A stretch of 64,000 nt of DNA from contig NZ_CP014517.1 of the NCBI RefSeq assembly GCF_001577265.1, positions 2,826,501 through 2,890,500 on the forward strand, in the 5' to 3' direction. The DNA comes from Variovorax sp. PAMC 28711. Lineage in GTDB: Bacteria > Pseudomonadota > Gammaproteobacteria > Burkholderiales > Burkholderiaceae_C. The notes beneath the pieces were generated by a model that saw nothing but the letters and a program-made list of their open reading frames with translations, had not been told where the DNA came from and searched no databases. The translations under genes were made by a program, and so were the position numbers. Positions 20,355 through 47,587 of the stretch are shown here, piece after piece (positions within the stretch are counted from its first letter, which is position 1; the number at the start of each line of letters is the position of its first letter).

Positions 20355-20360
20355 CGCGCA

Positions 20361-20972
20361 TCACTCCCTGGGGGGTCGGGGCTTGTTCAGCAGATAAAGC
20401 AACTGGGCCTTGATTTCGGGCCACTCGCCGGCCGCGACGCTGTACATCACGGTGTCGCGAACGGTGCCGTCGCGCCGCAGCGCGTGGCCGCGAATCACGC
20501 CGTCCTTTTTTGCGCCGAGTCGTTCGATCGCGTTCTGCGAGGCGAAGTTGAAGTTGTCGGTGCGCCAGCCGACCACGTTGCACTGCAGCGTCTCGAAAGC
20601 GTGCGTCAGCAGGAGCAGCTTGCAGGTGGTGTTGATGTGGGTGCGCTGGCAGCGCTTGGCATACCAGGTCCAGCCGATCTCCACGCGCTTCACGGCCGGC
20701 ACGATGTCGTGATAGCTCGTGCTGCCGAGCACCTCGCCTGTTGCCTGGTCGGTCACGGCGAACGCGAAGCGGCTCCCGGCTTCGCGCAATTGCATCGCGT
20801 GCTCGATGTAGGCGCGCGTGTCCCTGGGCTCCGGCACCGAGGTGACCCGCAGCGTCCAGAGCTCGCCGTCGGCGGCCGCCCCGCGCAGCCCGTCTTCGTG
20901 CGCCGGGCTGAGCGGCACCAACGCGATACCGCGCGACGACAAGGTGACAGGTTCGACAAAAGCCAACTTCAA
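20361..20972 (-). CDS. GNAT N-acetyltransferase (RimJ/RimL-like)
   Basis: Acetyl-CoA-dependent acetyltransferase of 203 residues resembling the RimJ/RimL branch. It opens with a substrate-side segment (LSSRGIALVPLSPAHEDGL) and has the core VEIGWTWYAKRCQRTHINTTCK, where Q/RxxGxA-type acetyl-CoA contact is expected, then NFNFASQNAIERLGAKKDG, the characteristic helix-turn before the last strand. The start is taken as TTG at 20972 because it overlaps the upstream stop (TTGA); no better in-frame start lies nearby. It ends 6 bases before the VWA start codon. Substrate unknown; it may modify a component of the MoxR-VWA module or simply be carried along. Confidence 0.8.
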   Translation of the reverse strand: MKLAFVEPVTLSSRGIALVPLSPAHEDGLRGAAADGELWTLRVTSVPEPRDTRAYIEHAMQLREAGSRFAFAVTDQATGEVLGSTSYHDIVPAVKRVEIGWTWYAKRCQRTHINTTCKLLLLTHAFETLQCNVVGWRTDNFNFASQNAIERLGAKKDGVIRGHALRRDGTVRDTVMYSVAAGEWPEIKAQLLYLLNKPRPPRE

Positions 20973-21214
20973 CTCCTCGGATTGCCGTATTTGCGCCGGT
21001 ACCAGGCGCGTGCCAGCTGCAGTCCGGCGCCACCCCCCAGGCCGATCAGCAGAATGCCGAAAATCTCGCTGTTGCCGTAGCCTGCGCTCGCAAAGGCATC
21101 GAAGCCGAGCAGCAGGCCGATCCAGCGGCCGAGCAGCGCACCGGCCACGAACAGCACCGCCTGGGCGACACCCAGCAAGAGCAACTGACGCGTCGGGTGC
21201 GGCGCTGGCGTCAT
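20969..21214 (-). CDS. Small two-helix membrane protein in moxR operon
   Basis: The 81-residue protein has two hydrophobic helices (about residues 11-37 and 50-68) and a positively charged tail (ARAWYRRKYGNPRS), predicting an inner-membrane hairpin with both ends in the cytoplasm. The ATG overlaps the moxR stop (ATGA), and its stop overlaps the acetyltransferase start, so it is translated as part of the chain. I do not recognise a named family. Its place between the ATPase and the VWA protein suggests it may tether the module to the membrane; that is inference from context only. Confidence 0.8.
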   Translation of the reverse strand: MTPAPHPTRQLLLLGVAQAVLFVAGALLGRWIGLLLGFDAFASAGYGNSEIFGILLIGLGGGAGLQLARAWYRRKYGNPRS

Positions 21215-22065
21215 CGGTTGTTGCGCTGCATGAAGACGAGCTTCTCGAACAATGTCACGTCCTGTTCGTTCTTGAGCAGCGCGCCCACCAGCGGCGGCAC
21301 CGCGACCTTGTCGTCCTTGCTCTGCAGCGCTTCGACTGGAATGTCCTCGGCCACCAGCAGCTTGAGCCAGTCGAGCAGTTCGGAGGTCGAAGGTTTCTTT
21401 TTCAGGCCCGGCAGGTTGCGCACGTCGTAGAAGGTCTTCATCGCGGCGGTGAGCAGTTCCTGCTTCAGGCCGGGGAAGTGCACGTCGACGATCTGCTTCA
21501 TCGTGGCGGCGTCGGGGAACTTGATGTAGTGGAAGAAGCAGCGCCGCAGGAACGCGTCGGGCAGTTCCTTCTCGTTGTTCGACGTGATGAACACGACCGG
21601 TCGGTGCTTGGCGCGGATGAGCTCGCGCGTCTCGTAGCAATAGAACTCCATGCGGTCGATTTCGCGCAAGAGGTCGTTCGGGAACTCGATGTCGGCCTTG
21701 TCGATTTCGTCGATCAGCAAGGCGACGGGCTGGTCGGCGGTGAAGGCTTGCCACAGCACGCCCTTGACGATGTAGTTCTGGATGTCCTTGACGCGCTCGC
21801 CGCCGTCGACGTCGGACAGCTGCGAGTCGCGCAGCCGGCTCACCGCGTCGTATTCATACAGGCCCTGCTGTGCCTTGGTGGTCGACTTGATGTGCCATTG
21901 CAGCAAAGGCAGCTTCAATGCTTCGGCCACTTCCTCGGCCAACATGGTCTTGCCGGTGCCGGGTTCGCCCTTGACGAGCAGCGGTCGTTTGAGCGTGATG
22001 GCGGCGTTCACCGCGAGCATCAGGTCCTGCGTGGCAACGTAATTGTCAGAGCCCTGGAATTTCAT
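21211..22065 (-). CDS. MoxR-family AAA+ ATPase
   Basis: Hexameric-type AAA+ ATPase of 284 residues used as a chaperone in metalloenzyme or envelope-complex maturation. Walker A is GEPGTGKTML at about residues 38-47, Walker B LLIDEIDKAD at about 110-119, and a sensor 1 Asn lies in FITSNNEKELP. The start MKFQGSDNYVATQDLM at 22065 is preferred over the longer reading, which extends into the promoter of the divergent cytochrome gene. First gene of the moxR - small membrane protein - GNAT - VWA operon. Confidence 0.92.
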   Translation of the reverse strand: MKFQGSDNYVATQDLMLAVNAAITLKRPLLVKGEPGTGKTMLAEEVAEALKLPLLQWHIKSTTKAQQGLYEYDAVSRLRDSQLSDVDGGERVKDIQNYIVKGVLWQAFTADQPVALLIDEIDKADIEFPNDLLREIDRMEFYCYETRELIRAKHRPVVFITSNNEKELPDAFLRRCFFHYIKFPDAATMKQIVDVHFPGLKQELLTAAMKTFYDVRNLPGLKKKPSTSELLDWLKLLVAEDIPVEALQSKDDKVAVPPLVGALLKNEQDVTLFEKLVFMQRNNR

Positions 22066-22150
22066 GAATGAGGTGACGCGAAGCGCGATGAGAGGTGGAT
22101 GAAAAGGCACATCCGATCGACATGGCGGAGCGTTTGGCACTCGCCGCAGA

Positions 22151-36093: not shown

Positions 36094-36564
36094 TCACTGG
36101 TAGATTTTTTGCAGCAGGCGGATGAGTGACTCGCGCTCGCGCGCGCTCAGCCTGGCGCTGGCGTCGAGCTCCAGTTGCGTCACCGCTTGCTCGGCCTCGC
36201 GCACCAGCGTGTTGCCCGCTGGTGTGAGATGCAGGCCGACGGCACGACCGTCGTGCGGATGCGGGCGCCGTTCGATCAGGCCGCGGCTGTCCATCGACGC
36301 GATCAGGCTCACCAGGTTCGGCGGCAGCATGCCGAGCGTGCTGCACAGCTGGCGCGAGGTGGCGCCAGGGTTGTGCGCCAGCAGCGAGAGCACCGAAAAA
36401 TCGACCTGCTTGAGCCCGTACGGCGCCATGCGCTCGGCGAACACCTCGCTGATCATCGAATAGGCCCGCCGCGCGTTGTAGCCGACCAGTTCTTCGAGCA
36501 CCTGGCTGTCGAGCCGCTCCGACAAGGTCGGCGCTGCGGCGGGTTTTTTGCGGGAGGTGGCCAT
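36094..36564 (-). CDS. MarR-family regulator (candidate CouR-like)
   Basis: The 156-residue winged-helix repressor includes the wing/recognition region TSRQLCSTLGMLPPNLVSLIASMDSRG... and the RRPHPHDGRAVGLHLT beta-wing typical of MarR. It is the last gene of the long minus-strand run with the liv transporter, acyl-CoA dehydrogenase and hydroxycinnamate-type genes. In Rhodopseudomonas and Rhodococcus, MarR proteins (CouR) repress p-coumarate genes and are released by the aryl-CoA. The same role here is inferred from position only. It starts 29 bases after the dehydrogenase stop. Confidence 0.85.
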   Translation of the reverse strand: MATSRKKPAAAPTLSERLDSQVLEELVGYNARRAYSMISEVFAERMAPYGLKQVDFSVLSLLAHNPGATSRQLCSTLGMLPPNLVSLIASMDSRGLIERRPHPHDGRAVGLHLTPAGNTLVREAEQAVTQLELDASARLSARERESLIRLLQKIYQ

Positions 36565-36593
36565 CGGCGAAGGGTACTGCCGAAAGACGCGGC

Positions 36594-38318
36594 TCAGGCC
36601 GCCGTCGACGCGGCGTGCTTTGCCATCGTCGCGTCGCAGGCCCGCTTGACGATGCCCAGGCGCATGTCGAATTCGGGCAGCACCCAGCGACGGAAAGCCG
36701 CCGAGGGCCGCGACCAGCGCGCGTCGCCGGGCGGCGCGGCGACGTCGATGCGCGCCCAGGCCCAGGCGAGCATCGTGATCATCACCACGCGCAGGTAGTC
36801 GTCGGCGATTTCGTAGGGCAGCACCGGATCGATGTGCGATGCCATGGCGATGGTGGTGGTGAGGTAGCGCAGTTGCGCCAGGCGGCGCTGCACGTCGGCA
36901 TCGGTCTCGCGCGAGGCTTCGAGCGCATCGCGCAGTTCGATCAGTACGGCCGACATGCCGGTGCCGCCATCGGCCAGCACCTTGCGGACCAGGAGATCGA
37001 TCGCCTGAATCTCGTTGGTGCCCTCGTAGATCATGGTCACGCGCGCGTCGCGCACCACCTGCTCGATGCCCCATTCGCGCACGTAGCCATGGCCGCCGAA
37101 CACCTGCAGACATTCGCTCGCGCCCTGGAACGCCTGTTGCGTGCACGCCGCCTTGAGCACCGGCGTGACCAGCGTGCACCAGCGTTGCGCCTTGTCGCGT
37201 GCCTTCGTGTCGTCGGCGTGCTTCGCCACATCGAGCTGGATCGCGGTGCGGTAGGCCAGCACGCGCGCACCGTCGATCCACGCGCGTTGCGTATCGAGAA
37301 TGCGGCGCATCGCGGGGTGTTCGGCCAGCAGGCTGGGACCGCTCCCGTCGGCGCCCGGTGCGCGCATCTGGCGGCGCTCGTTGGCATAGGCGTCGGCTTT
37401 CTGCCAGGCCGCGTCGAGCAGGCCGATGCCCTGCATCGCACAGTGCAGGCGCGCGGAATTCATCATCACGAACATCGCAGCCAGGCCGCGGTTCGGCTGG
37501 CCAATGAGCCAACCGGTCGCATTGTCGAAACGCATGCTGCAGGTCGAGCTGCCGTGCAGGCCCATCTTTTCTTCGATGCGCTCGCAGACCACCGCGTTGC
37601 GCGTGCCGTCGGGCAGCCGCTTGGGCACGAGCACCAGCGACAGACCCTTCGACCCGGCCGGTGCATCGGGCAGGCGGCACAGCACGAGGTGGACGATGTT
37701 CGGCGTGAGGTCGTGTTCGCCACCCGAGATGAAGATCTTGCTGCCGCTGACGACATGACTTCCATCGGACTGCGGCAGGGCGCGTGTGCGCACCTGCCCG
37801 AGGTCGCTGCCGGCATGCGCTTCGGTGAGGCACATCGTCGCGAGCCACTCGCCGGTGGCGACTTTCGACAGGTAGCGCGCCTTCAGGTCGTCGCTCGCGT
37901 GGTGCTTGAGGCATTCGTACGCACCGTGCAGCAGGCCCGGCGCCATCGTGAGCCCGTGGTTGGCCCCGCTGAGCCACTCGAAGACGATCGCTTCGAGCAC
38001 GCCCGGCAGGCCCTGGCCGCCGTCTTCGGGCGCCGCCGACACTGCCGGCCAGCCGCCTTGCCGGAAGCCGGCGTAGGCCTCGCGAAAACCCGGTGGCGTG
38101 ACGACTTCGCCGTCTTCGAAGCGGCAGCCGATCTCGTCGCCGACGCGGTTCACCGGCGCGACGACCTCGGCTACGAACTTCGCAGCCTCGTCGAGCACCT
38201 GCAATTGAAGCGCTTCGTCGGCATCGGCGAAAGGCGAGAGCGCGCGCAGTTGCGGCGTGGCGTCGAGCACGGCGTGCAGCACGAAGCGCACGTCATCGAG
38301 GCGGGGCTGGTAGTTCAT
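36594..38318 (-). CDS. Acyl-CoA dehydrogenase (DmdC-like, long form)
   Basis: FAD flavoprotein oxidising acyl-CoA to enoyl-CoA. The 574 residues exceed the classic ~380 and match the long DmdC/FadE-like group with N- and C-terminal extensions. FAD-binding segments MCLTEAHAGSDLGQVRT (about 155-171) and VSGSKIFISGGEHD are present. The catalytic Glu is in IYEGTNEIQAIDLL near residue 436. The ATG at 38318 is preferred; the frame is open slightly further up, into livF. Within a hydroxycinnamate cluster it could dehydrogenate dihydro-phenylpropanoyl-CoA to the cinnamoyl-CoA, feeding side-chain-reduced substrates into the same path. It ends the transport block and precedes marR. Confidence 0.9.
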   Translation of the reverse strand: MNYQPRLDDVRFVLHAVLDATPQLRALSPFADADEALQLQVLDEAAKFVAEVVAPVNRVGDEIGCRFEDGEVVTPPGFREAYAGFRQGGWPAVSAAPEDGGQGLPGVLEAIVFEWLSGANHGLTMAPGLLHGAYECLKHHASDDLKARYLSKVATGEWLATMCLTEAHAGSDLGQVRTRALPQSDGSHVVSGSKIFISGGEHDLTPNIVHLVLCRLPDAPAGSKGLSLVLVPKRLPDGTRNAVVCERIEEKMGLHGSSTCSMRFDNATGWLIGQPNRGLAAMFVMMNSARLHCAMQGIGLLDAAWQKADAYANERRQMRAPGADGSGPSLLAEHPAMRRILDTQRAWIDGARVLAYRTAIQLDVAKHADDTKARDKAQRWCTLVTPVLKAACTQQAFQGASECLQVFGGHGYVREWGIEQVVRDARVTMIYEGTNEIQAIDLLVRKVLADGGTGMSAVLIELRDALEASRETDADVQRRLAQLRYLTTTIAMASHIDPVLPYEIADDYLRVVMITMLAWAWARIDVAAPPGDARWSRPSAAFRRWVLPEFDMRLGIVKRACDATMAKHAASTAA

Positions 38319-38325
38319 GGTGCGA

Positions 38326-39054
38326 TCAGGTGCGTGCAGCGCCGAGGTAGGTGTCGATGACACGCGAATCGCCAGCGAGCTGACGGGCCGGCCCTTCCAG
38401 GCTCACATTGCCCATCTCGAGCACGTAGCCATGATCGGCCACCTCGAGTGCGGCGCGCGCGTTCTGCTCGACCAGCAGGATCGTCACGCCGGTCGCGCGC
38501 AACGCCTCGACGGTGCGGAAGATTTCCTGCACCACCAGCGGCGCGAGGCCAAGGCTGGGTTCGTCGAGCATCAGCAGCGAGGGTCGCGACATCAGCGCGC
38601 GGCCGACCGCAAGCATCTGGCGCTCGCCGCCCGAGAGCGTGCCGGCGAGTTGCGCCCGCCGCTCTTTCAGGCGCGGGAACAGCGTGTAGACCTGGTCGAT
38701 CTGGTCGCGCCACTGCTTGTTGCGCAGGCGCACCTGGCGGAACGCGCCGAGCACGAGGTTGTCTTCGACCGGCATCGTGCCGAAGAGCTCGCGCTTCTCG
38801 GGCACCAGCGCGATGCCGAGCATCACGCGCTCCTCGAGCGACAGCGCGGCGATCGACTGGCCCTGGTACTCGATGCCGCCCTTGGCCGGCAGGATGGCCA
38901 TGAGCGCGTTGAGCAAGGTCGACTTGCCCGCGCCGTTGGGGCCGATTACCGTCACGACGCTGCCCTTGTCGGCTTGCAGGGCGATGCCGTGCAGCACCTC
39001 GGCCCGGCCATAGCCGGCGTGCAGATTGCGGATGCGCAAAAGCGGAGTGGTCAT
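38326..39054 (-). CDS. livF: Branched-chain amino acid-type ABC transporter ATPase LivF
   Basis: ATP-binding subunit of a HAAT-type importer, 242 residues. Walker A is GPNGAGKSTLLN near 38, the signature LSGGERQMLAVGRAL near 140, and Walker B LLMLDEPSLGLAP follows. HAAT importers carry branched amino acids but also aromatic acids. The neighbours (CoA ligase, hydratase, acyl-CoA dehydrogenase) favour an aryl-acid substrate. It follows the LivM-LivG gene by 120 bases that hold a hairpin-rich repeat, and its stop is 7 bases from the acyl-CoA dehydrogenase start. Confidence 0.93.
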   Translation of the reverse strand: MTTPLLRIRNLHAGYGRAEVLHGIALQADKGSVVTVIGPNGAGKSTLLNALMAILPAKGGIEYQGQSIAALSLEERVMLGIALVPEKRELFGTMPVEDNLVLGAFRQVRLRNKQWRDQIDQVYTLFPRLKERRAQLAGTLSGGERQMLAVGRALMSRPSLLMLDEPSLGLAPLVVQEIFRTVEALRATGVTILLVEQNARAALEVADHGYVLEMGNVSLEGPARQLAGDSRVIDTYLGAART

Positions 39055-39074
39055 AAGGCCTGCCTGTCGTGGTG

Positions 39075-39127
39075 AACACCGCGGAACCGGCTTTGCCGGG
39101 CCGCTGGTGTTGCCCCCGGTGAGGGGG
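39075..39127. repeat. Intergenic double-hairpin element
   Basis: AACACC-GCGG ... CCGGC-TTT-GCCGG ... CCGC-T-GGTGTT forms one long, almost continuous stem (39075-39111). CCCCC-GGTGA-GGGGG (39113-39127) forms a second. It sits inside the livMG-livF gap. The composition matches what I recall of dispersed intergenic repeats in Comamonadaceae, but no second copy was spotted in this window. Confidence 0.55.
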
Positions 39128-39174
39128 TTGGCGAAGCGACACGAAGTGCGCGAAGACTGGGGGTGAGCTTCATC

Positions 39175-40968
39175 CTAGTGTTCCGTGCCCAGGTACGCCG
39201 CGCGCACCTTCGGGCTTTGCTGCACTTCGGCGGGCGTGCCTTCCATCAGGTGCGTGCCGAACTCCATCACGACGATGTGATCGCAGATGTCCATCACCAG
39301 GCCCATGTCGTGCTCGACCAGCAGGATGCTCATGCCTTCGCCGGCGAGCGTGCGCAGCACATCGGCCAGCGCCTGCTTTTCCTTGTGGCGCAGGCCCGCG
39401 GCGGGTTCGTCGAGCAGCAGCAGCGCCGGGTCGGCGCACAGCGCGCGTGCGATCTCCAGCAGGCGTTGCTGGCCCATGGCCAGGTTGCCCGCGGTCTCGT
39501 GCATCAAGTCAGCCATGCCGACGCGCTGCAGCTGGCGTTCGGCCTCGCGAAACAGCGCGCGCTCTTCCGCGCGATCGATGCGCAGCATGGCCGCGACGGC
39601 GCCCTTGCGGCCGCGCAGGTGGGCACCGAGTGCGACGTTTTCGAGCACCGTCATGTCCGGCACCATCTTCACGTGCTGGAAGGTGCGCGAGATGCCACGC
39701 TGCGCGATCTGGCGCGACGAGAGGCCCGCGATCGGTTCGCCGCGGAACTGCACTGCGCCGCCGCTCAGGCTCAGCAGTCCGGTCACGAGGTTGAAGGTGG
39801 TCGACTTGCCCGCGCCGTTCGGCCCGATCAGCCCGACGATCTGGCCGGCGCGCGTCTGGAAGCTGATGTCGTTCACGGCCACGAGGCCGCCGAAAGTCTT
39901 GCGGATCGCCTGCACGTCGAGCACCACCGCGCCGGCTGCGGGCTTCACGCGGAACGGCAGGTCGGCCACGCCGGTACCGTCGTGCCAATCGGCCGTGCGC
40001 TGCGGCCGCGGCAAGCGCCGGTCGACGAAAGCCCAGAGCCCGTCGGGCAGGTACTTCAGCACCAGCACGATCATGATGCCGAAGACAATGAGCTCGTAGT
40101 TGCCGCTGGTGCCGATCAACTTGGGCAGCAGTACCTGCAACTGGTCTTCGAGCAGCTTGACAATGGCCGCGCCCGCGATGGCGCCCCACACATGCGCCGC
40201 GCCGCCCAGCACTGCCATGAAGAGGTACTCGATGCCCATCTTCAAGCCGAAGGGCGAGGGGTTCACCGTGCGCTGGAAGTGCGCGAAGAGCCAGCCCGAC
40301 ACCGAGGCGAACATCGCCGCCAGCACGAAGATGCCGATCTTGAAGCGCAGCGTGTTCACGCCCATCGCCTCGGCCATCTGCGAACCGCCGGCCAGCGAAC
40401 GGATCGCGCGACCGCTGCGCGAGTCGAGCAGCCGGATGACGGCGAGCGATGCGATCAGCACGAAAGCCCACACCACGCCGAAGAAGACGCGCTGCTGCCC
40501 GATCTCCAAGCCGAACAGCGAGAGCCCCTTCACGCCCAGAATGCCGTCGTACTTGCCGAGCGCATCGAGGTTGCCCATGAGGTAGTAGAGCGCGAGCGCC
40601 CAGGCGATGGTGGCCAGTGGCAGGTAGTGCCCTGACATGCGCAGCGTGATCGCGCCGATGAGGGCCGCGCTGATGGCCGTGAGCCCGAGCCCGATGAAGA
40701 GCGTGAGCCAGGGCGAGAGGTCCAGGGTCGTCGTGAGGTAGGCCGAGGTGTACGCCCCGATGCCCACGAACGCCGCCTGCCCGAAAGAAGTGAGCCCGCC
40801 CACGCCGGTGAGCAGCACCAGCCCGAGCACTGGCAGCGCGTAGATGCCGATGTAGTTGAGCTGGAGGATCCAGAAGTCGGGCAGCGGCAACAGCGGCAGT
40901 GCGACGAGCACCGCCACCAGGACCAGCGGGCCCCCGGTGCGCAGCATGCTTTTTTGTGCGGCCGCCAT
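39175..40968 (-). CDS. Fused LivM permease - LivG ATPase of HAAT-type ABC importer
   Basis: A single 597-residue polypeptide. The N-terminal permease (LivM, about residues 1-310) has many hydrophobic helices and the EAA-like GINTLRFKIG-type coupling segment (GVNTLRFKIGIFVLAAMFA). A linker follows, then a LivG ATPase (about 345-597) with Walker A GPNGAGKSTTFN, signature LAMGQQRLLEIARAL (first position LAMG instead of LSGG/LSYG) and Walker B LLLLDEPAAGL. The ATG at 40968 follows the livH stop by one base (TGACATG); an earlier ATG at 40983 would overlap livH by 14 bases. Confidence 0.93.
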   Translation of the reverse strand: MAAAQKSMLRTGGPLVLVAVLVALPLLPLPDFWILQLNYIGIYALPVLGLVLLTGVGGLTSFGQAAFVGIGAYTSAYLTTTLDLSPWLTLFIGLGLTAISAALIGAITLRMSGHYLPLATIAWALALYYLMGNLDALGKYDGILGVKGLSLFGLEIGQQRVFFGVVWAFVLIASLAVIRLLDSRSGRAIRSLAGGSQMAEAMGVNTLRFKIGIFVLAAMFASVSGWLFAHFQRTVNPSPFGLKMGIEYLFMAVLGGAAHVWGAIAGAAIVKLLEDQLQVLLPKLIGTSGNYELIVFGIMIVLVLKYLPDGLWAFVDRRLPRPQRTADWHDGTGVADLPFRVKPAAGAVVLDVQAIRKTFGGLVAVNDISFQTRAGQIVGLIGPNGAGKSTTFNLVTGLLSLSGGAVQFRGEPIAGLSSRQIAQRGISRTFQHVKMVPDMTVLENVALGAHLRGRKGAVAAMLRIDRAEERALFREAERQLQRVGMADLMHETAGNLAMGQQRLLEIARALCADPALLLLDEPAAGLRHKEKQALADVLRTLAGEGMSILLVEHDMGLVMDICDHIVVMEFGTHLMEGTPAEVQQSPKVRAAYLGTEH

Positions 40969-40969
40969 G

Positions 40970-42010
40970 TCAGTGGTCCTCATCGGAATGGCCGCTGCGC
41001 AGCGACCGCCACAGAAGCACCGGCAGGATGATCGTGAACACGATCACTTCCTTGAAGGCGCTGGCCCAGAAGGATCCGAACGCCTCGATGACGCCCACGG
41101 CGAGCGCACCGATCAACGCGCCGGGGTAGCTTGCGAGCCCCGCGATCACGCCGGCCACGAAGCCTTTCAGGCCGATCAGAAAACCCGAGTCGTAGAAGAT
41201 GGTCGTGGTCGGCCCGATGAGCAGGCCCGAGAGCGCACCGATGAGCCCGGCCATCGCGAAGGTCAGCTGGCCGGCCGCCTGCGTCGAGATGCCCATGAGC
41301 CGTGCCCCGAGGCGGTTGACTGCGGTCGCACGCAGCGCCTTGCCGTAGAGGCTGCGCTCGAAGAAGAGCCACAGCAGAACGATGAGCGCAGCCGAGGCAC
41401 CGAAGATGATGAGCGTCTGACCGCTCAGGTTGATCGGGCCGAGCGCGAAGCGCACGTCCCAGAACGGCGGGTTGCGAAAACCCTCTGCCCCGAAGAAGAG
41501 AAGACCGAGGCCGGTCATCGCGAAGTGCACGCCGACCGAGACGATCAGCAGCACCAGTGAACTCGAGCCCGCCAGCGATTGGTACGCCACCCGGTACACC
41601 AGCGGTCCGAAGGCGGTCACGATGCACACGGTGAGCAGCGCCTGCACCGTGAGTGGCAGGTTGCGCGGGCCGGCCCAGGCCGCGATCGCGCAGATGACCG
41701 CCGGCGCGATGAACGTGCGCAGCGCCGCCATCACCGCCGGCCCCGCGCTGCCGCGGTGCCGCCAGGTGGTGACGAGTTCCATCAGCGCCGCGACCCCCGC
41801 GAGGATCAGCAGCAGCCAGACGGTGCCCGGCGTCTTGCCGGTCTGGAAGATCGCCAGCGTGAGCGCGCCGTAGGCCACGAACTCACCCTGCGGGATGAAG
41901 ATGACGCGGGTGACGGTGAACACGAGCACGATGCCCATGCCCAGCAGGGCGTAGATCGCGCCGTTGGTCAGTCCGTCCAGCGTCAGGATGCTGGCGATCG
42001 AAAAATCCAT
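40970..42010 (-). CDS. livH: ABC transporter permease LivH (HAAT family)
   Basis: Integral membrane permease of 346 residues with about nine hydrophobic helices, beginning [22 protein letters not shown]. It carries the conserved coupling segment [18 protein letters not shown] near residue 225. It is somewhat longer than E. coli LivH (~308) owing to an insertion around residues 75-120. It pairs with the LivM half of the next gene, and lies 4 bases after the livK stop. Confidence 0.93.
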
Positions 42011-42014
42011 CGGT

Positions 42015-43148
42015 TTACTGTTCGACCTTGAACTTGCCGTCGACGACCTTGAGCATCACGCCGGTCTCGTTCGTGTAGCCCCAATGGTCCTGTGCCGTCC
42101 AGTTCAGCACGCCGTGAGCGAGCACTGTGCGCCCCATGTTCTCCAGGGCGTCGCGCAGCGCGGAGCGGAATTCCGGTGTTCCCGGCTTGGCTTTCTTCAG
42201 CGCGACCGGTATCGCTTTTTCGAGCACCGTGAGCGCGTCGGCCGAGTGGCCGGCGAACTGGTTGCGCGAACCGACGCCGTAGGCCTTCTCGTAGTTCTGC
42301 ACGAAGGCCACCGCCATGGCCTTCGACGGATGGCTGTCGGGCAGCTGCTCGGCGACGGTCGCCGGGCCGGACACGACGTAGGTGCCTTCTGCGTCCTTGC
42401 CGGCGGTGCGCATCAGGTCCTGCGTTGCGGCGGCGTGCGTCTGGTAGACCTTGCCCTTGAACCCGCGCTCCATCACCGCTTTCTGCGGCATGCCTGCGCC
42501 GCTGCCCGAGGCGACGATCAGGATCGCATCCGGGTTTGCCGCGTTGAGCTTGAGCACCTGACCGGTGACGCTGGTGTCGGCGCGCGCGAAGCGCTCGGTT
42601 GCGACGATCTTGAGGCCGTTCTTCTCGGCCTCCGCCGTCAGCGCCTTGAGCCACAGTTCGCCGTAGGCATCGGTGTAGCCGAGAAAGCCGACCGTCTTCA
42701 CCCCGTGAGCCTTCATGTGCTTGACGACCGCGAAGGCCATCACGTCGTTCGACTGCGGCATGCGGAAGAACCACTTGTCCTTGCCCGGCGGCAGGCCGGC
42801 CGGAGAGGTGGCCAGCTGAGGCGTGCCCGCTTCGGCCGTCACGTCGGCCATCGGGATGGCCACCGGCGTGGCACTCGATCCGACAATCACGTCGACCTTG
42901 TCTTCAGTGACCAGACGCTGCGCGTCCTTCACGCCGAGCGTCGGATCCGAGGCATCGTCCAGCACCACGACCTTGAGCGTCTCGCCCGCGATGGTCTTGG
43001 GCCAGATCATGATCCCGTTCTTCACGGGAATGCCAAGGCCCGAAGCGGGGCCGGTGAGCGGCTGCACGACGCCGACGGTGATGTCGGCATGGGCGGCCAT
43101 GGCCATGAGGGCGAACGCGGTCGCGAGGACGGTCTTGGTGAACTTCAT
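42015..43148 (-). CDS. livK: Periplasmic substrate-binding protein LivK-like
   Basis: Receptor of the HAAT importer, 377 residues. It has a Sec signal peptide ([21 protein letters not shown], cleaved before DIT) and the type I periplasmic-binding fold starting [24 protein letters not shown] receptors in aromatic-acid clusters (for example CouP/CouT-type) bind hydroxycinnamates. The surrounding genes suggest the same, but ligand residues cannot be assigned by eye. The ATG at 43148 is supported by the signal peptide and a GGAG upstream. It lies 52 bases after the SDR gene. Confidence 0.92.
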
Positions 43149-43200
43149 TGGTTTGTCTCCTGAAGGAAGGGATGAAACGAAACTGCGGTCGTCCGCGCGC

Positions 43201-43965
43201 TCAGCGCGGTGCCATGCGCAACGCGCCATCGAGGCGAATCACTTCACCGTTGAGATGGCCGTTGGTGACGATGTGACAGGCGAGTTCGGCGAACTCCGAA
43301 GGCTTGCCGAGCCGGGGTGGGAACGGGATCGATGCAGCCAGCGATTTTTGTACCGGTTCGGGGAGTTCCATGAGCAAAGGCGTTGCGAACAAACCTGGAG
43401 CGATGGTGCACACCCGGATGGCGTGCTGCGCCAGATCGCGTGCCATCGGCAATGTCATGCCGACCAGGCCGCCTTTCGAGGCGCTGTAGGCCTGCTGGCC
43501 GACCTGGCCGTCGAACGCGGCGACCGACGCGGTGAAGAGCATCACGCCGCGCTCGCCGTTGTCCAGCACATCGAGCTTGGCGCAGGCCGCAGCGAACAGA
43601 CGCGCCATGTTGTAGCCGCCGATCAGATTGATGTTGACCACGCGCACGAAGTCTTCGAGCGGCGCCGGCGTGCCGTCCTTGGCGACGATGCGCCTGGCGC
43701 TGCCGACGCCCGCCACGTTCATGAGGATGCGCGCCGGGCCGTGCGCCGCCGTGGCCTTGTCGAGCGCGGCGGTCACGCTCGCGGTGTCGGTGATGTCGCA
43801 GGTGCACGCGACGCCGCCGATCTCGGCCGCGATCTTCTCTGCCAACTCGGCGTTGCGGTCCAGCACTGCGACCTTGGCGCCGAGGCGTGCCAGTTCGCGT
43901 GCGGTGGCTTCGCCGAGGCCCGATGCGCCGCCGGTCACGAGGGCGGCTTGTCCTTGGATGTTCAT
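43201..43965 (-). CDS. Short-chain dehydrogenase (3-hydroxyacyl-CoA dehydrogenase type II-like)
   Basis: NAD-dependent SDR of 254 residues. Cofactor loop TGGASGLG is at about 11-18, DR after strand 2 (VAVLDRNAELA) favours NAD, and the catalytic YSASK is at about 161-165. The overall pattern resembles HSD10/FabG-like 3-hydroxyacyl-CoA dehydrogenases. Co-translated with the upstream CoA ligase (ATGA). In the proposed hydroxycinnamate path it would oxidise the 3-hydroxy-3-arylpropanoyl-CoA made by the crotonase to the beta-keto thioester, the role of CouN in Rhodococcus. Confidence 0.88.
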   Translation of the reverse strand: MNIQGQAALVTGGASGLGEATARELARLGAKVAVLDRNAELAEKIAAEIGGVACTCDITDTASVTAALDKATAAHGPARILMNVAGVGSARRIVAKDGTPAPLEDFVRVVNINLIGGYNMARLFAAACAKLDVLDNGERGVMLFTASVAAFDGQVGQQAYSASKGGLVGMTLPMARDLAQHAIRVCTIAPGLFATPLLMELPEPVQKSLAASIPFPPRLGKPSEFAELACHIVTNGHLNGEVIRLDGALRMAPR

Positions 43966-45839
43966 GGTGTCTTGTCTCCGGTGGGTTGCAGGGTGAAAGG
44001 CAGGCCGCCGGTGTGAAGCGCCTCGACTTCGGCGGCGCGGTGCTTGAGCACCGCACGCTGGTTGAGCGAGCCCTTGTCGGTGACCTCGCCCTTGTCGATC
44101 GACGGTGGCTGCGCGACGAAATGCGCGCGCGCGATGCGGTTGGCGCTGCCGGTGGCATGCGCCGCGAGCGCATCGAGGATCTGCTGCAGCCGCGCTTGTA
44201 CCGGCGCGCTCTGCAGCACCTGCTGCATCGATGCGTCGGCCGGCAGGCCGGAGAGCGGGCGCACCGCCTGCGTCGGGAAGATCAGCGCGCCGACTTCCTT
44301 CAGGTTGATGCCGGTGAGCACCACGTCCTGGATGTACGGCGCGCCGGCCGCGATGATCTTCGCGCGCAGCGGGCCGACGCTCACGAAAGTGCCGGTCGCG
44401 AGCTTGAAGTCTTCAGCGATCCGACCGTCGAAGCGCAGGCCCTTGTGGATATCGTCGGCATCGATCCAGGTCACGGCGTCGCCGGTGCAGAAAAAGCCTT
44501 CGTCGTCGAAAGCCTCGGCGGTGGCGTCGGGCGCGCGCCAGTAGCCGGGCGTGATGTTGGGGCCGCGGTAGCGCACCTCGGTCTTGCCCTCGGTGTCGAC
44601 CAGCTTGATTTCCAGGCCCGGCGCGGGCAGGCCCAGGTCGCCCGAACTCACCTCGGGCCGGCTGATGTAGAGCGCGAACGGCGACGACTCGGTCATGCCG
44701 AGGCCGGTGCCCATCACGATGCGCTCGCCGACTTCGGCTTCCTGGGTGCGGTGCAGGCTGTCCCACACCGGCTGCGCGAGCGCGGCGCCGGCATAGAAGA
44801 ACATCCTCACCCGCGAGAGCAGTTTCTTGCGCAGCACTTCATCGGTTTCCATCGCGTTGGCAATGGCCTCGAAGCCGGTCGGCACGTTGAAGTAGACGGT
44901 CGGCGCGATCTCGCGCAGGTTGCGCAGCGTCTCGGCCATGCCGCCGGGCGTGGGCTTGCCGTCGTCGATGTAGAGCGTGCCGCCATTCGCCAGGGCGATG
45001 CCCAGGTTGTGGTTGCCACCAAAGGTGTGGTTCCACGGCAGCCAGTCGACCAGCACCGGCGGCTCGTCGGCCAGCGCCGGGATGGATTGCCGCAACTGCT
45101 GCTGGTTGGTGCACCACATGCGGTTGGTGTTGACGACGGCCTTGGGCAGCTTGGTGGAGCCCGAGGTGAAGAGGAACTTGGTGATCGTGTCGGGGCCGGT
45201 CGCGCGCATGGCGGCATCGACCGCGGGCGTCGCGACGGTGGCATCGAGCGCCGCGAAGCTCGTCGTGGCGCGATCGTCGAGCGTGCCGTCGGCCAGCACC
45301 ACTTCGACATCGGCCGGCACCACCGCCGCGATGGCTCGGCCATAGCGCGCCGCGTCGCTCGCGAACACGAGGCCGGGGGTGAGCGTGTCGAACACGTGGC
45401 GCAGCTTGTCGAAGTCCTGGCTGATGACGGAATAGGGCGGCGACACAGGGCAGTGCGGCACGCCGACGTAGAGGCCGCCGAGCGCCAGCAGCGCGTGTTC
45501 GATGCTGTTCTCGCTGAGGATCGCGAGCGGGCGGTCGGCATTCAAGCCGCGGTCGAGCAGCGCCTGGCCGATGCGGCGCGCGTGTTGCAGCGCCTGGGCA
45601 TAGCTCACGCGCAGCCAGTCCCCGGTGGTGCCGTCGGGAAGACGCTCGCGGCGCGCGATGAAGGTGCGATCGGGCGCGGTTTCGGCCCAGTGCACCAGCC
45701 GGTCGATCATGCGGTCGCAGCAAGGTGCGAGCGGTGTTTCCGCCATCAGGTAACGGGTGCCCGGCGCGCCGTCGCGCAGCACGCCGCGCGTGACGCCGAA
45801 GGCGAGCGGACGGTAGCGAACGCCGGGCGCGGCGGTCAT
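43962..45839 (-). CDS. fcs: Feruloyl-CoA synthase-like aryl-CoA ligase
   Basis: ANL-superfamily acid-CoA ligase of 625 residues, the length usual for feruloyl-CoA synthases (longer than ~550-residue 4CL types). The ATP/AMP loop is FTSGSTKLPKAVVNTNRM at about 210-227, with LPWNHTFGGNHNLGIAL and GLGMTESSPFALY following. A C-terminal domain carries the catalytic Lys region. It activates hydroxycinnamates such as ferulate, p-coumarate or caffeate to CoA thioesters. The ATG at 45839 overlaps the crotonase stop (ATGA), and the stop overlaps the SDR start. The sequence does not tell which cinnamate is preferred. Confidence 0.9.
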   Translation of the reverse strand: MTAAPGVRYRPLAFGVTRGVLRDGAPGTRYLMAETPLAPCCDRMIDRLVHWAETAPDRTFIARRERLPDGTTGDWLRVSYAQALQHARRIGQALLDRGLNADRPLAILSENSIEHALLALGGLYVGVPHCPVSPPYSVISQDFDKLRHVFDTLTPGLVFASDAARYGRAIAAVVPADVEVVLADGTLDDRATTSFAALDATVATPAVDAAMRATGPDTITKFLFTSGSTKLPKAVVNTNRMWCTNQQQLRQSIPALADEPPVLVDWLPWNHTFGGNHNLGIALANGGTLYIDDGKPTPGGMAETLRNLREIAPTVYFNVPTGFEAIANAMETDEVLRKKLLSRVRMFFYAGAALAQPVWDSLHRTQEAEVGERIVMGTGLGMTESSPFALYISRPEVSSGDLGLPAPGLEIKLVDTEGKTEVRYRGPNITPGYWRAPDATAEAFDDEGFFCTGDAVTWIDADDIHKGLRFDGRIAEDFKLATGTFVSVGPLRAKIIAAGAPYIQDVVLTGINLKEVGALIFPTQAVRPLSGLPADASMQQVLQSAPVQARLQQILDALAAHATGSANRIARAHFVAQPPSIDKGEVTDKGSLNQRAVLKHRAAEVEALHTGGLPFTLQPTGDKTP

Positions 45840-46609
45840 GCCTTCTTCACCTTCTCGGCGCGGCCTTCGAGGAAATCGCGCAGGCGCGTCTTGGCTTCGG
45901 GCGCGCTTTGCGCGATGCCGGCGATCAGCGCTTCGGTGAAGTAGCCCTGGTCGGCCGGCTGCTCGGCAATGCGGGGCAGCGCGTGCATCAGCGCGTAGTT
46001 GGTGAGCGGCGCGTTCTGCGCGACGCGTTTGGCGAGCTCGAAGGCCTTGTCGAACGCCGTGCCTTCGGGCACGAGGTACTGCGCGAAGCCGGCGCGCTCG
46101 CCGTCTTCGGCGTTGTAGACGCGGCCGGTCAGCATCATGTCGGTCATGCGCGCGACGCCGATCAGCTTGGGGATGCGCACCGAGCCGCCGCCGCCGACGA
46201 AGATGCCGCGCGAGCCTTCGGGCAGGGCATAAAAAGTCGAGGCATCGGCCACGCGGATGTGGCAAGCGCTCGCGAGTTCGAGGCCGCCGCCGACCACTGC
46301 GCCGTGCAGTGCCGCGATCACCGGTACCGGGCCGTACTGCACACAGTTGAGCGCGGCGTGCCACATGCGCGAATGCTGCATGCCCTGGCCTGCGTCGCGC
46401 TCCTTCAGTTCGCTCAGGTCGAGGCCGGCGCAGAAGTGCGGACCCTCGCCGTCGATGACCGCTGCGCGCACGCTGGCGGGCAGCGTTTCGAAGGTGTTTC
46501 GCAAGGCCAGGATGAGGCCGTCCGACAGCGCGTTGCGCTTGGCGCCGCGCGTCAGGCGGATCACGGCGACATCGTCGTGAACTTCGAGCTGGAGATCAGG
46601 GTGGGTCAT
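45836..46609 (-). CDS. Crotonase-family enoyl-CoA hydratase
   Basis: The 257-residue crotonase has oxyanion-hole segments FCAGLDLSEL (about 60-69) and GAVVGGGLELASAC (about 104-117). The acid/base Glu lies in FYALPEGSRGIF (about 126-137). It may hydrate aryl-enoyl-CoA to the 3-hydroxy thioester. In one-step vanillin-forming Ech enzymes the same family also performs retro-aldol cleavage. Presence of an SDR and an amidohydrolase beside it argues for hydration only. First gene of the long minus-strand operon; a promoter with 17-base spacing lies just upstream. Confidence 0.88.
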   Translation of the reverse strand: MTHPDLQLEVHDDVAVIRLTRGAKRNALSDGLILALRNTFETLPASVRAAVIDGEGPHFCAGLDLSELKERDAGQGMQHSRMWHAALNCVQYGPVPVIAALHGAVVGGGLELASACHIRVADASTFYALPEGSRGIFVGGGGSVRIPKLIGVARMTDMMLTGRVYNAEDGERAGFAQYLVPEGTAFDKAFELAKRVAQNAPLTNYALMHALPRIAEQPADQGYFTEALIAGIAQSAPEAKTRLRDFLEGRAEKVKKA

Positions 46610-46631
46610 GATTGCATTCGGGGTTGGCTTC

Positions 46632-46661
46632 GATTATGGTTATGCGAAATAATCAATTCAA
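46632..46661 (-). promoter_or_regulatory. Promoter of the hydroxycinnamate-type operon with overlapping palindrome
   Basis: On the minus strand, -35 TTGAAT (46661-46656), 17-base spacer, -10 CATAAT (46638-46633). The inverted repeat GATTAT (46632-46637) / ATAATC (46649-46654) covers the -10 and most of the spacer, a position suited to a repressor such as the MarR protein encoded at the far end of the operon. The same gap must also drive the divergent amidohydrolase. Confidence 0.65.
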
Positions 46662-46711
46662 GCCTCAAAGTCGCCCCCGGCATCAGGACTTACCCTCACT
46701 GGAGACACCGC

Positions 46712-47587
46712 ATGGACCACGCCAATCTCATCGCGATCGACACCCACACGCACGCCGAAATCAGCTGTTGGAACCCGTTCGATAACTACGGCGAGGAGTA
46801 CGACCGCGCCGCCGACAAATACTTCAAGTCGGGCAAGCGGCCGACCATCCAGGAAAGCATCGACTACTACCGCGAACGCAAGATCGGGCTGGTGATGTTC
46901 ATGGTCGACGCGGAGTCGAACATGGGTCGGCGCCGCATCCCGAACGAAGAGATCGCGGAGCACGCGCGGGCCAACAGCGACATGATGATCGCGTTCGCCA
47001 GCATCGATCCGCACAAGGGAAAAATGGGTGCGCGCGAGGCGCGCCGGCTCATCACCGAGTACGGCGTGAAGGGCTTCAAGTTCCATCCGACGGTGCAGGG
47101 CTTTCACCCCTACGACAAGATGGCATGGCCGATCTACGAGGTCATCAACGAATACGGTTTGCCGGCGGTGTTCCATACCGGACACAGCGGCATTGGTTCG
47201 GGCATGCGCTGCGGTGGCGGCTTGCGCCTGGAGTACAGCAACCCGATGCACCTGGACGATGTCGCGATCGATTTTCCCGACATGCAGATCGTCATGGCGC
47301 ACCCCAGCTTCCCGTGGCAGGACGAAGCGCTGAGCGTCGCGATGCACAAGCCGAACGTGTGGATCGACCTGTCGGGCTGGAGCCCGAAGTACTTCCCGAA
47401 GCAGCTCGTGCAGTACGCCAACACCTTGCTCAAGGATCGCGTGCTGTTCGCGAGCGACTACCCGTTGATCACGCCGGACAAGTGGCTCAAGGATTTCCAG
47501 GATGCGGGGTTCAAGCCGGAAGTCGTGCCGGGGATCCTGAAGGGGAACGCGGTGCGGCTGCTGAAGCTGGACGCGCCAGCGTCCTGA
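46712..47587 (+). CDS. Amidohydrolase family protein (candidate 4-hydroxyphenyl-beta-ketoacyl-CoA hydrolase)
   Basis: The 291-residue metal-dependent hydrolase of the amidohydrolase-2/ACMSD group has HxH in DTHTHAE (about 10-16), GFKFHPTVQGFHPYD, His in VFHTGHSGIGSG, MAHPSFPWQ and the metal Asp in LFASDYPLI. A GGAG precedes the ATG by 7 bases. Divergent from the crotonase-CoA ligase-SDR genes. In Rhodococcus an amidohydrolase (CouO) cleaves aryl-beta-ketoacyl-CoA to a hydroxybenzoate and acetyl-CoA. The matching gene set makes this the best guess, though related proteins are decarboxylases. Confidence 0.82.
   Translation: MDHANLIAIDTHTHAEISCWNPFDNYGEEYDRAADKYFKSGKRPTIQESIDYYRERKIGLVMFMVDAESNMGRRRIPNEEIAEHARANSDMMIAFASIDPHKGKMGAREARRLITEYGVKGFKFHPTVQGFHPYDKMAWPIYEVINEYGLPAVFHTGHSGIGSGMRCGGGLRLEYSNPMHLDDVAIDFPDMQIVMAHPSFPWQDEALSVAMHKPNVWIDLSGWSPKYFPKQLVQYANTLLKDRVLFASDYPLITPDKWLKDFQDAGFKPEVVPGILKGNAVRLLKLDAPAS

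What the first reader, a model, noticed from the sequence alone, without database searches (positions are those of the whole stretch)
36094..47587. Probable hydroxycinnamate uptake and beta-keto-thioester catabolic cluster beside pca genes
One strand carries crotonase, feruloyl-CoA-synthase-like ligase, SDR (all ATGA-coupled), a four-function HAAT importer, a long acyl-CoA dehydrogenase and a MarR regulator. A metal amidohydrolase diverges from the head. Ligase + hydratase + dehydrogenase + amidohydrolase is the CouLMNO set described for Rhodococcus p-hydroxycinnamate breakdown, and MarR-type CouR plus an ABC importer is known in Rhodopseudomonas. Combining all of these in one coupled operon near pcaHG/pcaIJF in a betaproteobacterium suggests a complete ferulate/coumarate-to-TCA module. 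The dehydrogenase may add dihydro-substrates.
Basis: partly seen in the sequence, partly recalled or inferred. Interest (0 to 1): 0.7.

Follow-up and report, generated by a model that had tools for sequence, protein, structure and literature searches.

The report
Cou-type hydroxycinnamate uptake and breakdown operon
This is a bacterial gene cluster that very probably imports plant phenolic acids such as p-coumarate and ferulate and cuts off their side chain; every part has known relatives, but the mix joins two separately described versions of the pathway.

Summary
In detail: nine minus-strand genes (46609-36094) face a divergent amidohydrolase (46712-47587). Import, ligase, hydratase and regulator genes are homologous to the Rhodopseudomonas palustris cou locus (47-64% identity; regulator 33-39%). 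The binding protein keeps all five residues with which CouP hydrogen-bonds ferulate; six equally distant relatives each lose at least one. The regulator's best PDB match is CouR, and a palindrome with a 5-bp spacer, of the form found at Rhodopseudomonas cou hydratase genes, lies between the divergent genes. The SDR belongs with type II 3-hydroxyacyl-CoA dehydrogenases. In 15 related Burkholderiales-type loci, amidohydrolase and/or a thiolase occur in 12 and an aldehyde dehydrogenase in none. Two amidohydrolase relatives sit in hydroxyacetophenone-type (hpe-like) clusters, where the same aryl-beta-keto-CoA chemistry is proposed. I favour beta-oxidative side-chain removal ending in CouO-type hydrolysis. 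The main rival is the non-beta-oxidative route described for R. palustris, whose hydratase is 62% identical. "Complete pathway beside pca" is overstated: pobA, VanA-type genes and pcaB lie elsewhere, and pcaF was near only 1 of 15 related loci. A hybrid variant of known systems, not a new kind; no experimental evidence.

The parts
46712..47587 (+). Amidohydrolase (PF04909), 291 aa; proposed CouO/HpeF-type aryl-beta-ketoacyl-CoA hydrolase
   Evidence: Pfam 171.8 bits; no NCBIfam family. H12, H14, H125, H155, H197 and D249 kept in at least 28 of 29 family sequences. Tree: inside a 9-row set (99/99), all beside cou-type genes. Single match in own genome.
46637..46655 (.). Predicted CouR-type operator (TGGTTAT-N5-ATAATCA on the + strand) between the divergent genes
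   Evidence: Only match of TGRTTATN5ATAAYCA in the window with up to 2 mismatches; 0 in 100 shuffles. Looser motif within 200 bp upstream of the hydratase in 75 of 95 loci (window included), against 28 in 2.69 Mb elsewhere.
45836..46609 (-). Crotonase-type hydratase, 257 aa (CouA-like)
   Evidence: NF006013 423.7 bits, cut-off 232. 62% to PDB 3hin, which is 98% identical to the Rhodopseudomonas cou-locus hydratase. Two conserved Glu (E111, E131) aligned with those of relatives.
43962..45839 (-). Acyl-CoA synthetase, 625 aa (CouB-like; relatives annotated feruloyl-CoA synthase)
   Evidence: NF009232 707.3 bits, under its cut-off 777. 50-52% to Rhodopseudomonas cou-locus ligases. No close solved structure.
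43201..43965 (-). SDR, 254 aa, type II 3-hydroxyacyl-CoA dehydrogenase group
   Evidence: Of the 16 best PDB matches (E 1e-76 to 1e-59) 13 are named 3-hydroxyacyl-CoA dehydrogenase or HADH2; the next match is E 4e-32.
42015..43148 (-). Periplasmic binding protein, 377 aa (CouP-like)
   Evidence: 172 of 353 residues identical to R. palustris CouP; T102, R197, S222, Q305, H309 equivalents all conserved.
40970..42010 (-). LivH-type permease
   Evidence: PF02653; 52-54% to Rhodopseudomonas cou-locus genes.
39175..40968 (-). Fused LivM permease / LivG ATPase (alternative start 40983)
   Evidence: PF02653 + PF00005 + PF12399; 55-57% to Rhodopseudomonas cou-locus genes.
38326..39054 (-). LivF-type ATPase
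   Evidence: PF00005; 55-57% to Rhodopseudomonas cou-locus genes.
36594..38318 (-). Acyl-CoA dehydrogenase, 574 aa; proposed 3-arylpropionyl-CoA (dihydro-substrate) dehydrogenase
   Evidence: Closest PDB chains are long ACADs 8r1e, 8png, 8pns, 8pu5, 6ijc (E 3e-137 to 2e-120). Present in 7 of 15 related loci.
36094..36564 (-). MarR-family regulator, 156 aa (CouR-like)
   Evidence: Best PDB match 6c28, named CouR (E 5.6e-19); Rhodococcus CouR 5cyv only E 2.5e-8.

Best explanation
A CouR-type repressor controls a divergent operon that imports 4-hydroxycinnamates (p-coumarate, caffeate, ferulate) through a CouPSTU-type ABC importer and activates them to CoA thioesters with the ligase. The side chain is removed by CoA-linked beta-oxidation: hydration by the crotonase, NAD-linked oxidation of the 3-hydroxyacyl-CoA by the type II SDR, then hydrolytic cleavage of the aryl-beta-ketoacyl-CoA by the amidohydrolase to acetyl-CoA and a free benzoate (4-hydroxybenzoate, vanillate). 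The benzoates reach protocatechuate by PobA and VanA-type enzymes encoded elsewhere and then enter the beta-ketoadipate pathway. The acyl-CoA dehydrogenase probably feeds dihydro-substrates (phloretate type) in at the enoyl-CoA level. Shown by sequence: gene identities, homology to the cou locus, ligand-contact conservation, operator-like palindrome, SDR family. Inferred: substrates, reaction order, hydrolytic final step, role of the ACAD, repressor ligand.
For: Seven genes homologous to the R. palustris cou locus. All five CouP ferulate contacts (PMC3610893) conserved at 49% identity, while SBP relatives at 46-56% in L018, L154, L161, L176, L187 and L189 each lose Q305 and/or H309. MarR nearest to CouR in the PDB. 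Operator motif rare in the window and upstream of the hydratase in 75 of 95 loci. SDR group. In 15 loci with ligase >=55%: hydratase 13, SDR 11, amidohydrolase 8, thiolase 7, either 12 (both 3), ALDH 0. Amidohydrolase relatives (73%, 56%) in hpe-like gene orders L017 and L217; HpeF is reported 95% identical to CouO and proposed as beta-ketoacyl-CoA hydrolase (PMC9618137, passages). Same enzyme set in Rhizobium sp. Q54, hydrolase annotated 4-hydroxyphenyl-beta-ketoacyl-CoA hydrolase. Tannase/feruloyl esterase genes in L151 and L148 and L020. Own genome: pobA 677.7 bits, cut-off 538.7; two VanA_C matches; no PRK09120 Ech over cut-off.
Against: The hydratase is 62% identical to the R. palustris cou hydratase, whose pathway is described as non-beta-oxidative, and both keep the same two glutamates, so sequence does not tell hydratase from hydratase/lyase. 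Amidohydrolase homologues (57-61%) were in 16 of 16 searched Rhodopseudomonas/Bradyrhizobium-type genomes; in six of seven fetched stretches they lay away from recognised cou genes, four of them near a HAD-type hydrolase (L233 and L236 not scanned for it), so this identity level does not fix the role. Of 15 plasmid contexts looked at (of 248 records with a match), seven were neither cou- nor hpe-like. Two of 11 SDR-bearing loci (L151, L152) had neither amidohydrolase nor thiolase over the thresholds; of 59 CouP-fetched loci over 20 kb, 43 have the SDR but none of the cleaving enzymes. L154, a cou-like locus, has an SBP that lost T102 and Q305. Operator motif absent upstream of the hydratase in 13 of 21 Burkholderiales-type and 4 of 4 plasmid loci. 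Own genome has ALDHs, one about 6 kb from a VanA gene. No CouO, CouL, CouN or Pcd sequence was compared directly. No expression or enzyme data.
Confidence: 0.8

Rival explanations
1. Non-beta-oxidative (retro-aldol) route as described for R. palustris: the hydratase is a hydratase/lyase giving an aromatic aldehyde plus acetyl-CoA, an aldehyde dehydrogenase elsewhere oxidises it, and SDR and amidohydrolase serve side substrates.
For: 62% identity to the Rhodopseudomonas cou hydratase; its route is described as non-beta-oxidative (PMC3610893; that couAB yield p-hydroxybenzaldehyde is recalled, Hirakawa 2012, not held). Own genome has ALDHs, one about 6 kb from a VanA gene.
Against: ALDH in 0 of 15 related loci, although the two own-genome ALDH queries did find ALDHs in L018, L020, L164, L165 and L216, L220; SDR in 11 of 15; amidohydrolase or thiolase in 12 of 15. 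SDR groups with 3-hydroxyacyl-CoA dehydrogenases. No classic Ech over cut-off.
Confidence: 0.12
2. The operon handles another 3-substituted propionate or propenoate (3-arylpropionate only, methylthiopropionate, other acyl), with hydroxycinnamates incidental.
For: Second-best PDB match of the hydratase is 4izb/4izc and a close one of the ACAD is 6ijc, recalled as DmdD and DmdC of dimethylsulfoniopropionate breakdown. The ACAD suggests saturated substrates.
Against: The binding protein keeps the residues that contact the 4-OH and carboxylate of ferulate; 3hin scores 320 bits against 232 for 4izb; MarR closest to CouR.
Confidence: 0.05
3. The amidohydrolase belongs to a different pathway (for example hydroxyacetophenone breakdown, hpe-type) and only neighbours this operon; cleavage of the beta-ketoacyl-CoA is by a thiolase encoded elsewhere.
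For: Closest plasmid relative (73%) is in an hpe-like cluster; L154 and L160 have SDR and a thiolase but no amidohydrolase.
Against: No hpe-like carboxylase gene among the neighbours scanned; divergent from the hydratase across a promoter region with one operator-like site; within the 9-row set beside cou-type genes; no thiolase other than pcaF found in the window.
Confidence: 0.05

Closest known systems
Rhodopseudomonas palustris cou locus (couAB, couPSTU, couR)
   Same: Homologous hydratase, ligase, binding protein, LivH, fused LivMG, LivF and MarR in one locus; same operator form upstream of the hydratase
   Different: No SDR, amidohydrolase or ACAD found within the fetched flanks of the Rhodopseudomonas loci; pathway described as non-beta-oxidative; also has the TRAP importer TarPQM (PMC3610893, passages)
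Rhodococcus jostii RHA1 cou genes
   Same: CoA activation, beta-oxidative deacetylation, amidohydrolase-superfamily last step (CouO) giving an aromatic acid, MarR CouR with a 5-bp-spaced inverted repeat between divergent promoters (PMC4737184, passages)
   Different: Regulator distant (5cyv E 2.5e-8); CouL/M/N/O sequences not compared
Corynebacterium glutamicum phd pathway
   Same: Ligase, enoyl-CoA hydratase, 3-hydroxyacyl-CoA dehydrogenase, 3-oxoacyl-CoA ketohydrolase (PMC5479773, passages)
   Different: Sequences not compared; no CouP-type importer mentioned in the passages seen
hpe acetovanillone/hydroxyacetophenone cluster, HpeF
   Same: Proposed beta-ketoacyl-CoA hydrolase, 95% identical to CouO (PMC9618137, passages); amidohydrolases in hpe-like gene orders are 73% and 56% identical to ours
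   Different: Reaches the beta-keto acid by carboxylation, not beta-oxidation
Pseudomonas fluorescens pcd (PFLU3296) phloretoyl-CoA dehydrogenase
   Same: An acyl-CoA dehydrogenase gene in a hydroxycinnamate operon, needed for phloretate (PMC12642758, passages)
   Different: Pcd sequence not compared; that operon has Fcs, Ech and Vdh

Membership tests
CouP-type hydroxycinnamate-binding protein | Residues H-bonding ferulate: T102, R197, S222, Q305, H309 | tested here: met
   5 of 5 conserved. Of 20 related SBPs chosen for comparison 12 keep all five (7 Rhodopseudomonas/Bradyrhizobium-type, L147-L149, L155, L215) and 8 do not (L018, L154, L161, L176, L187, L189 and the distant L196, L216)
CouP-type hydroxycinnamate-binding protein | Nanomolar binding of coumarate/ferulate | not testable with these tools
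   needs purified protein
CouR-type MarR repressor | Closest characterised relative is CouR | tested here: met
   6c28, named CouR, E 5.6e-19; next chain E 1.3e-9. That 6c28 is the R. palustris CouR is recalled
CouR-type MarR repressor | Binds an inverted repeat at the operon promoter | tested here: inconclusive
   Palindrome present and conserved in form; binding not shown; motif generalised after seeing the sequences
CouR-type MarR repressor | Released by p-coumaroyl-CoA | not testable with these tools
   needs binding assay
CouO/HpeF beta-ketoacyl-CoA hydrolase | Amidohydrolase-type metal ligands | tested here: met
   H12, H14, H125, H155, H197, D249 in at least 28 of 29 sequences; a 33% outgroup (L221) keeps HxH and Asp but lacks the other three His. 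That these bind metal is inferred from the superfamily
CouO/HpeF beta-ketoacyl-CoA hydrolase | Groups with cou- and hpe-linked hydrolases rather than decarboxylases | tested here: inconclusive
   Both hpe-linked rows (only two) fall among cou-linked rows in the tree; decarboxylases in the PDB only E 4e-7 or weaker, but none was in the tree
CouO/HpeF beta-ketoacyl-CoA hydrolase | Direct sequence identity to RHA1 CouO | not tested
   CouO sequence not obtained (one search failed)
CouO/HpeF beta-ketoacyl-CoA hydrolase | Hydrolyses 4-hydroxybenzoylacetyl-CoA | not testable with these tools
   needs enzyme assay
Beta-oxidative cou/phd pathway | Ligase, hydratase, 3-hydroxyacyl-CoA dehydrogenase and keto-hydrolase candidates encoded together | tested here: met
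   (gene families; activities not shown)
Classic Fcs/Ech/Vdh pathway | PRK09120-type p-hydroxycinnamoyl-CoA hydratase/lyase | tested here: not met
   No match over cut-off in own genome; best 133.7 bits against 276

The most novel reading that the evidence does not exclude
The operon is a natural hybrid: an uptake-activation-hydration-regulation block shared with the non-beta-oxidative R. palustris cou system has been rewired to beta-oxidation by adding a type II SDR, and its final cleavage step is an exchangeable slot filled by either a CouO-type hydrolase (free benzoate) or a thiolase (benzoyl-CoA). The same CouA-type hydratase clade would then serve retro-aldol in one lineage and plain hydration in another.
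Probability: 0.4. Interest if true: 0.5.

Novelty: new variant of a known kind. Interest (0 to 1): 0.4.

Why it matters
It would place CouO-type beta-keto-thioester hydrolysis in a recurrent betaproteobacterial operon with its own high-affinity importer and regulator, widen the known reach of the cou regulon, and give matched natural sets (hydrolase, thiolase or aldolase around homologous hydratases) to test what decides between beta-oxidative and retro-aldol breakdown of lignin monomers. For annotation, the names feruloyl-CoA synthase and branched-chain amino acid transporter at such loci could be made precise.

Tried and rejected
Rejected: simple branched-chain amino acid uptake (binding protein is CouP-type). 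Classic Fcs/Ech/Vdh (no ALDH found in the window's queries). Decarboxylase identity for the amidohydrolase (weak PDB matches; decarboxylases were not in the tree). Conserved physical linkage to pca (pcaF >=60% near 1 of 15 related loci). My recollection that PhdC of C. glutamicum is an acyl-CoA dehydrogenase was wrong: PMC5479773 gives PhdC as the ketohydrolase; the claim was dropped.

Led nowhere: the ligase has no close solved structure. Paper searches for a betaproteobacterial cou-type operon listed none that I recognised from titles and abstract starts, in an open-licence library; one search returned no paper. The nearest, PMC3560178 on Cupriavidus basilensis (passages), proposes the Hca aldehyde route and mentions a beta-oxidative alternative. 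I looked for CouO through Rhodococcus genomes (one search failed). R. palustris's own amidohydrolase does not reveal its role. I did not run structure prediction.

Caveats on method: loci L022-L101 are close relatives, so the 67 of 70 operator counts among them are not independent. The operator pattern was written after seeing the window and its relatives and loosened after seeing Rhodopseudomonas. Identity thresholds and the cou/hpe/other labels were set by me. Of 51 ligase places, 49 were fetched (own and one partial place, G271:C224, were not). L191, overlapping L155, was dropped; of the remaining 48 loci, 9 of 15 kb or less were left out of the tables. In one search two of the four sequences meant as aldehyde dehydrogenase queries (from L202 and L204) were longest open frames that look like shadow frames, so the ALDH test rests on two real queries (L199, L200).


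Full report
WHAT IS THERE. The window is G000:C1:2826501-2890500 of a 4.32-Mb single-contig genome. On the minus strand, from 46609 to 36094, lie a crotonase-type hydratase, a 625-aa acyl-CoA synthetase, an SDR, a periplasmic binding protein, a LivH-type permease, a fused LivM-LivG protein, a LivF ATPase, a 574-aa acyl-CoA dehydrogenase and a MarR regulator; a PF04909 amidohydrolase diverges at 46712-47587. Hydratase-ligase and ligase-SDR junctions are ATGA overlaps.

RELATION TO THE R. PALUSTRIS COU LOCUS. The best PDB matches of the binding protein are 3uk0, 3tx6/4f8j/4fb4 and 4jb0/4jb2; PMC3610893 (passages) names 4JB0, 4JB2, 4F8J and 4FB4 as CouP of R. palustris. Scanning genomes with the CouP sequence found 253 relatives, of which the best 80 were kept. 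The ten Rhodopseudomonas-titled loci carry, where the contig is long enough, hydratase (59-64% identity to ours), ligase (50-52%), binding protein (47-51%), LivF, fused LivMG and LivH (52-57%) and MarR (33-39%) in one stretch. PDB 3hin, the closest structure to our hydratase (62%), is 98% identical to the Rhodopseudomonas gene in that position. The MarR's best PDB match is 6c28, named CouR (E 5.6e-19; that it is the R. palustris protein is recalled); Rhodococcus CouR, 5cyv (PMC5487221, passages), is E 2.5e-8.

WHAT IT IMPORTS. PMC3610893 names five CouP residues that hydrogen-bond ferulate. Numbering was checked against the chain, and all five (T102, R197, S222, Q305, H309) are conserved in our protein at 49% identity (172 of 353). 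Six relatives of similar divergence (L154 56%, L176 52%, L018 51%, L187 49%, L189 49%, L161 46%) each lose Q305 and/or H309, the 4-OH contacts. L154 is itself in a cou-like locus, so the pocket may vary among such loci. This makes a 4-hydroxycinnamate ligand likely, not proven.

HOW THE SIDE CHAIN IS REMOVED. Two routes start with the same ligase and hydratase: a non-beta-oxidative cut to an aldehyde, described for R. palustris, and beta-oxidation to a beta-ketoacyl-CoA, described for RHA1 (CouO, amidohydrolase superfamily; PMC4737184, passages) and C. glutamicum (PMC5479773, passages). Three results favour the second. First, the SDR groups with type II 3-hydroxyacyl-CoA dehydrogenases by a wide margin. 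Second, among 15 related loci from 15 genomes whose ligase is >=55% identical, 13 have the hydratase, 11 the SDR, 8 the amidohydrolase, 7 a thiolase, 12 one or both of the last two (3 both), and none an aldehyde dehydrogenase in the 20-kb stretch; the ALDH queries did find ALDHs in L018, L020, L164, L165, L216 and L220. For comparison, 6 of 12 loci at 48-54% and 1 of 12 below 48% have amidohydrolase or thiolase, and 2 and 1 an ALDH. A thiolase instead of the amidohydrolase in L154 and L160 is what is expected if both cleave the same beta-ketoacyl-CoA. Third, amidohydrolase relatives occur in cou-like clusters (L019, L215, L216, L220) and in gene orders like hpe (L017, L217), where HpeF, 95% identical to CouO, is proposed to act on hydroxyphenyl-beta-ketopropionyl-CoA (PMC9618137, passages). 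In a 37-row tree the window protein lies in a 9-row set beside cou-type genes (99/99) with one hpe-linked row just outside (12-row set, 100/100); the other hpe-linked row is nested among cou-linked ones.

AGAINST. The hydratase alone cannot settle the route: the same two glutamates are in ours and in the Rhodopseudomonas proteins. Amidohydrolase homologues (57-61%) are in 16 of 16 Rhodopseudomonas/Bradyrhizobium-type genomes searched; in six of seven stretches fetched they stood away from recognised cou genes, four of the six near a HAD-type hydrolase, and in the seventh (L237) beside MarR, hydratase and ligase relatives. Seven of the 15 plasmid contexts I looked at were neither cou- nor hpe-like. 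Of 59 CouP-fetched loci over 20 kb, 43 have the SDR yet none an amidohydrolase, thiolase or ALDH in the stretch. L151 and L152 have the SDR but neither cleaving enzyme over the thresholds (L151 has a 29% thiolase-like match). NCBIfam has no family for the amidohydrolase.

REGULATION. The 102-bp divergent region holds TGATTATTTCGCATAACCA (minus strand), arms of seven with one mismatch and a 5-bp spacer; it is the only such site in 64 kb. Rhodopseudomonas loci have TCGTTATAGTCTATAACTA or the like some 70-75 bp upstream of the hydratase. The motif TNRTTAT-N5-ATAAYNA is within 200 bp upstream of the hydratase in 75 of 95 loci (67 of 70 CouP-fetched, 8 of 21 Burkholderiales-type with the window, 0 of 4 plasmid) against 28 occurrences in 2.69 Mb elsewhere. 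RHA1 CouR also uses a 5-bp-spaced repeat shared by divergent promoters, of different sequence.

IMPORTER AND ACCESSORY VARIATION. Five of 15 loci have the HAAT importer and five a TctC-type receptor; plasmid loci L019, L020 and L220 have TRAP importers. Tannase/feruloyl esterase genes occur in L151 and L148 and L020, in keeping with hydroxycinnamate esters as sources. The acyl-CoA dehydrogenase is in 7 of 15. Its proposed role rests on analogy with Pcd of P. fluorescens (PMC12642758, passages); sequences were not compared.

DOWNSTREAM. pcaHG and pcaIJF with a PcaR/PcaU-type regulator are about 6-13 kb away. pobA, VanA-type genes and pcaB are elsewhere; the best PcaC match, next to pcaB, is under its cut-off (136.3 against 155.7 bits). 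The route to the TCA cycle is plausible in the genome but is not one locus.

PAPERS. Passages only were seen of PMC12642758, PMC4737184, PMC12442348, PMC9618137, PMC5948850, PMC3610893, PMC9594313, PMC5487221, PMC3560178 and PMC5479773; others only as search listings; Hirakawa 2012 is recalled.

VERDICT. A hybrid cou-type operon, recurrent in outline: strong computational support for hydroxycinnamate uptake and activation, good support for beta-oxidative cleavage by a CouO-type hydrolase, no experimental support yet.

Noticed in passing
L148, L150, L154, L155, L156, L159, L160: A thiolase (63-100% identical to the L150 gene) lies in the same stretch as the cou-type ligase, sometimes with and sometimes without the amidohydrolase.
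   Followed up: partly
L151:5003-6817 (-): A tannase/feruloyl esterase gene stands where other loci have the acyl-CoA dehydrogenase.
   Followed up: partly
L232-L236, L238: Rhodopseudomonas/Bradyrhizobium-type amidohydrolase homologues stand apart from recognised cou genes, at least four of six near a HAD-type hydrolase; role unknown.
   Followed up: partly
L017, L217: Plasmids of Pseudomonas putida YC-AE1 and Rhizobium leguminosarum BT01 carry hpe-like gene orders (biotin carboxylase, HAD hydrolase, acetoacetate-CoA-ligase-like gene, amidohydrolase); the P. putida one has pobA nearby.
   Followed up: no
39055-39174: A 120-bp gap between LivMG and LivF in an otherwise tightly packed operon; not examined.
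   Followed up: no
19167-22140 (-): MadB-like AAA ATPase (21211-22140) near a protein with a weak SAV_2336-type match (19167-20354).
   Followed up: no
G000:C1:3402692-3417000: An aldehyde dehydrogenase, a VanA-type oxygenase and a distant branched-chain-type importer lie together, possibly a vanillin/vanillate locus.
   Followed up: no
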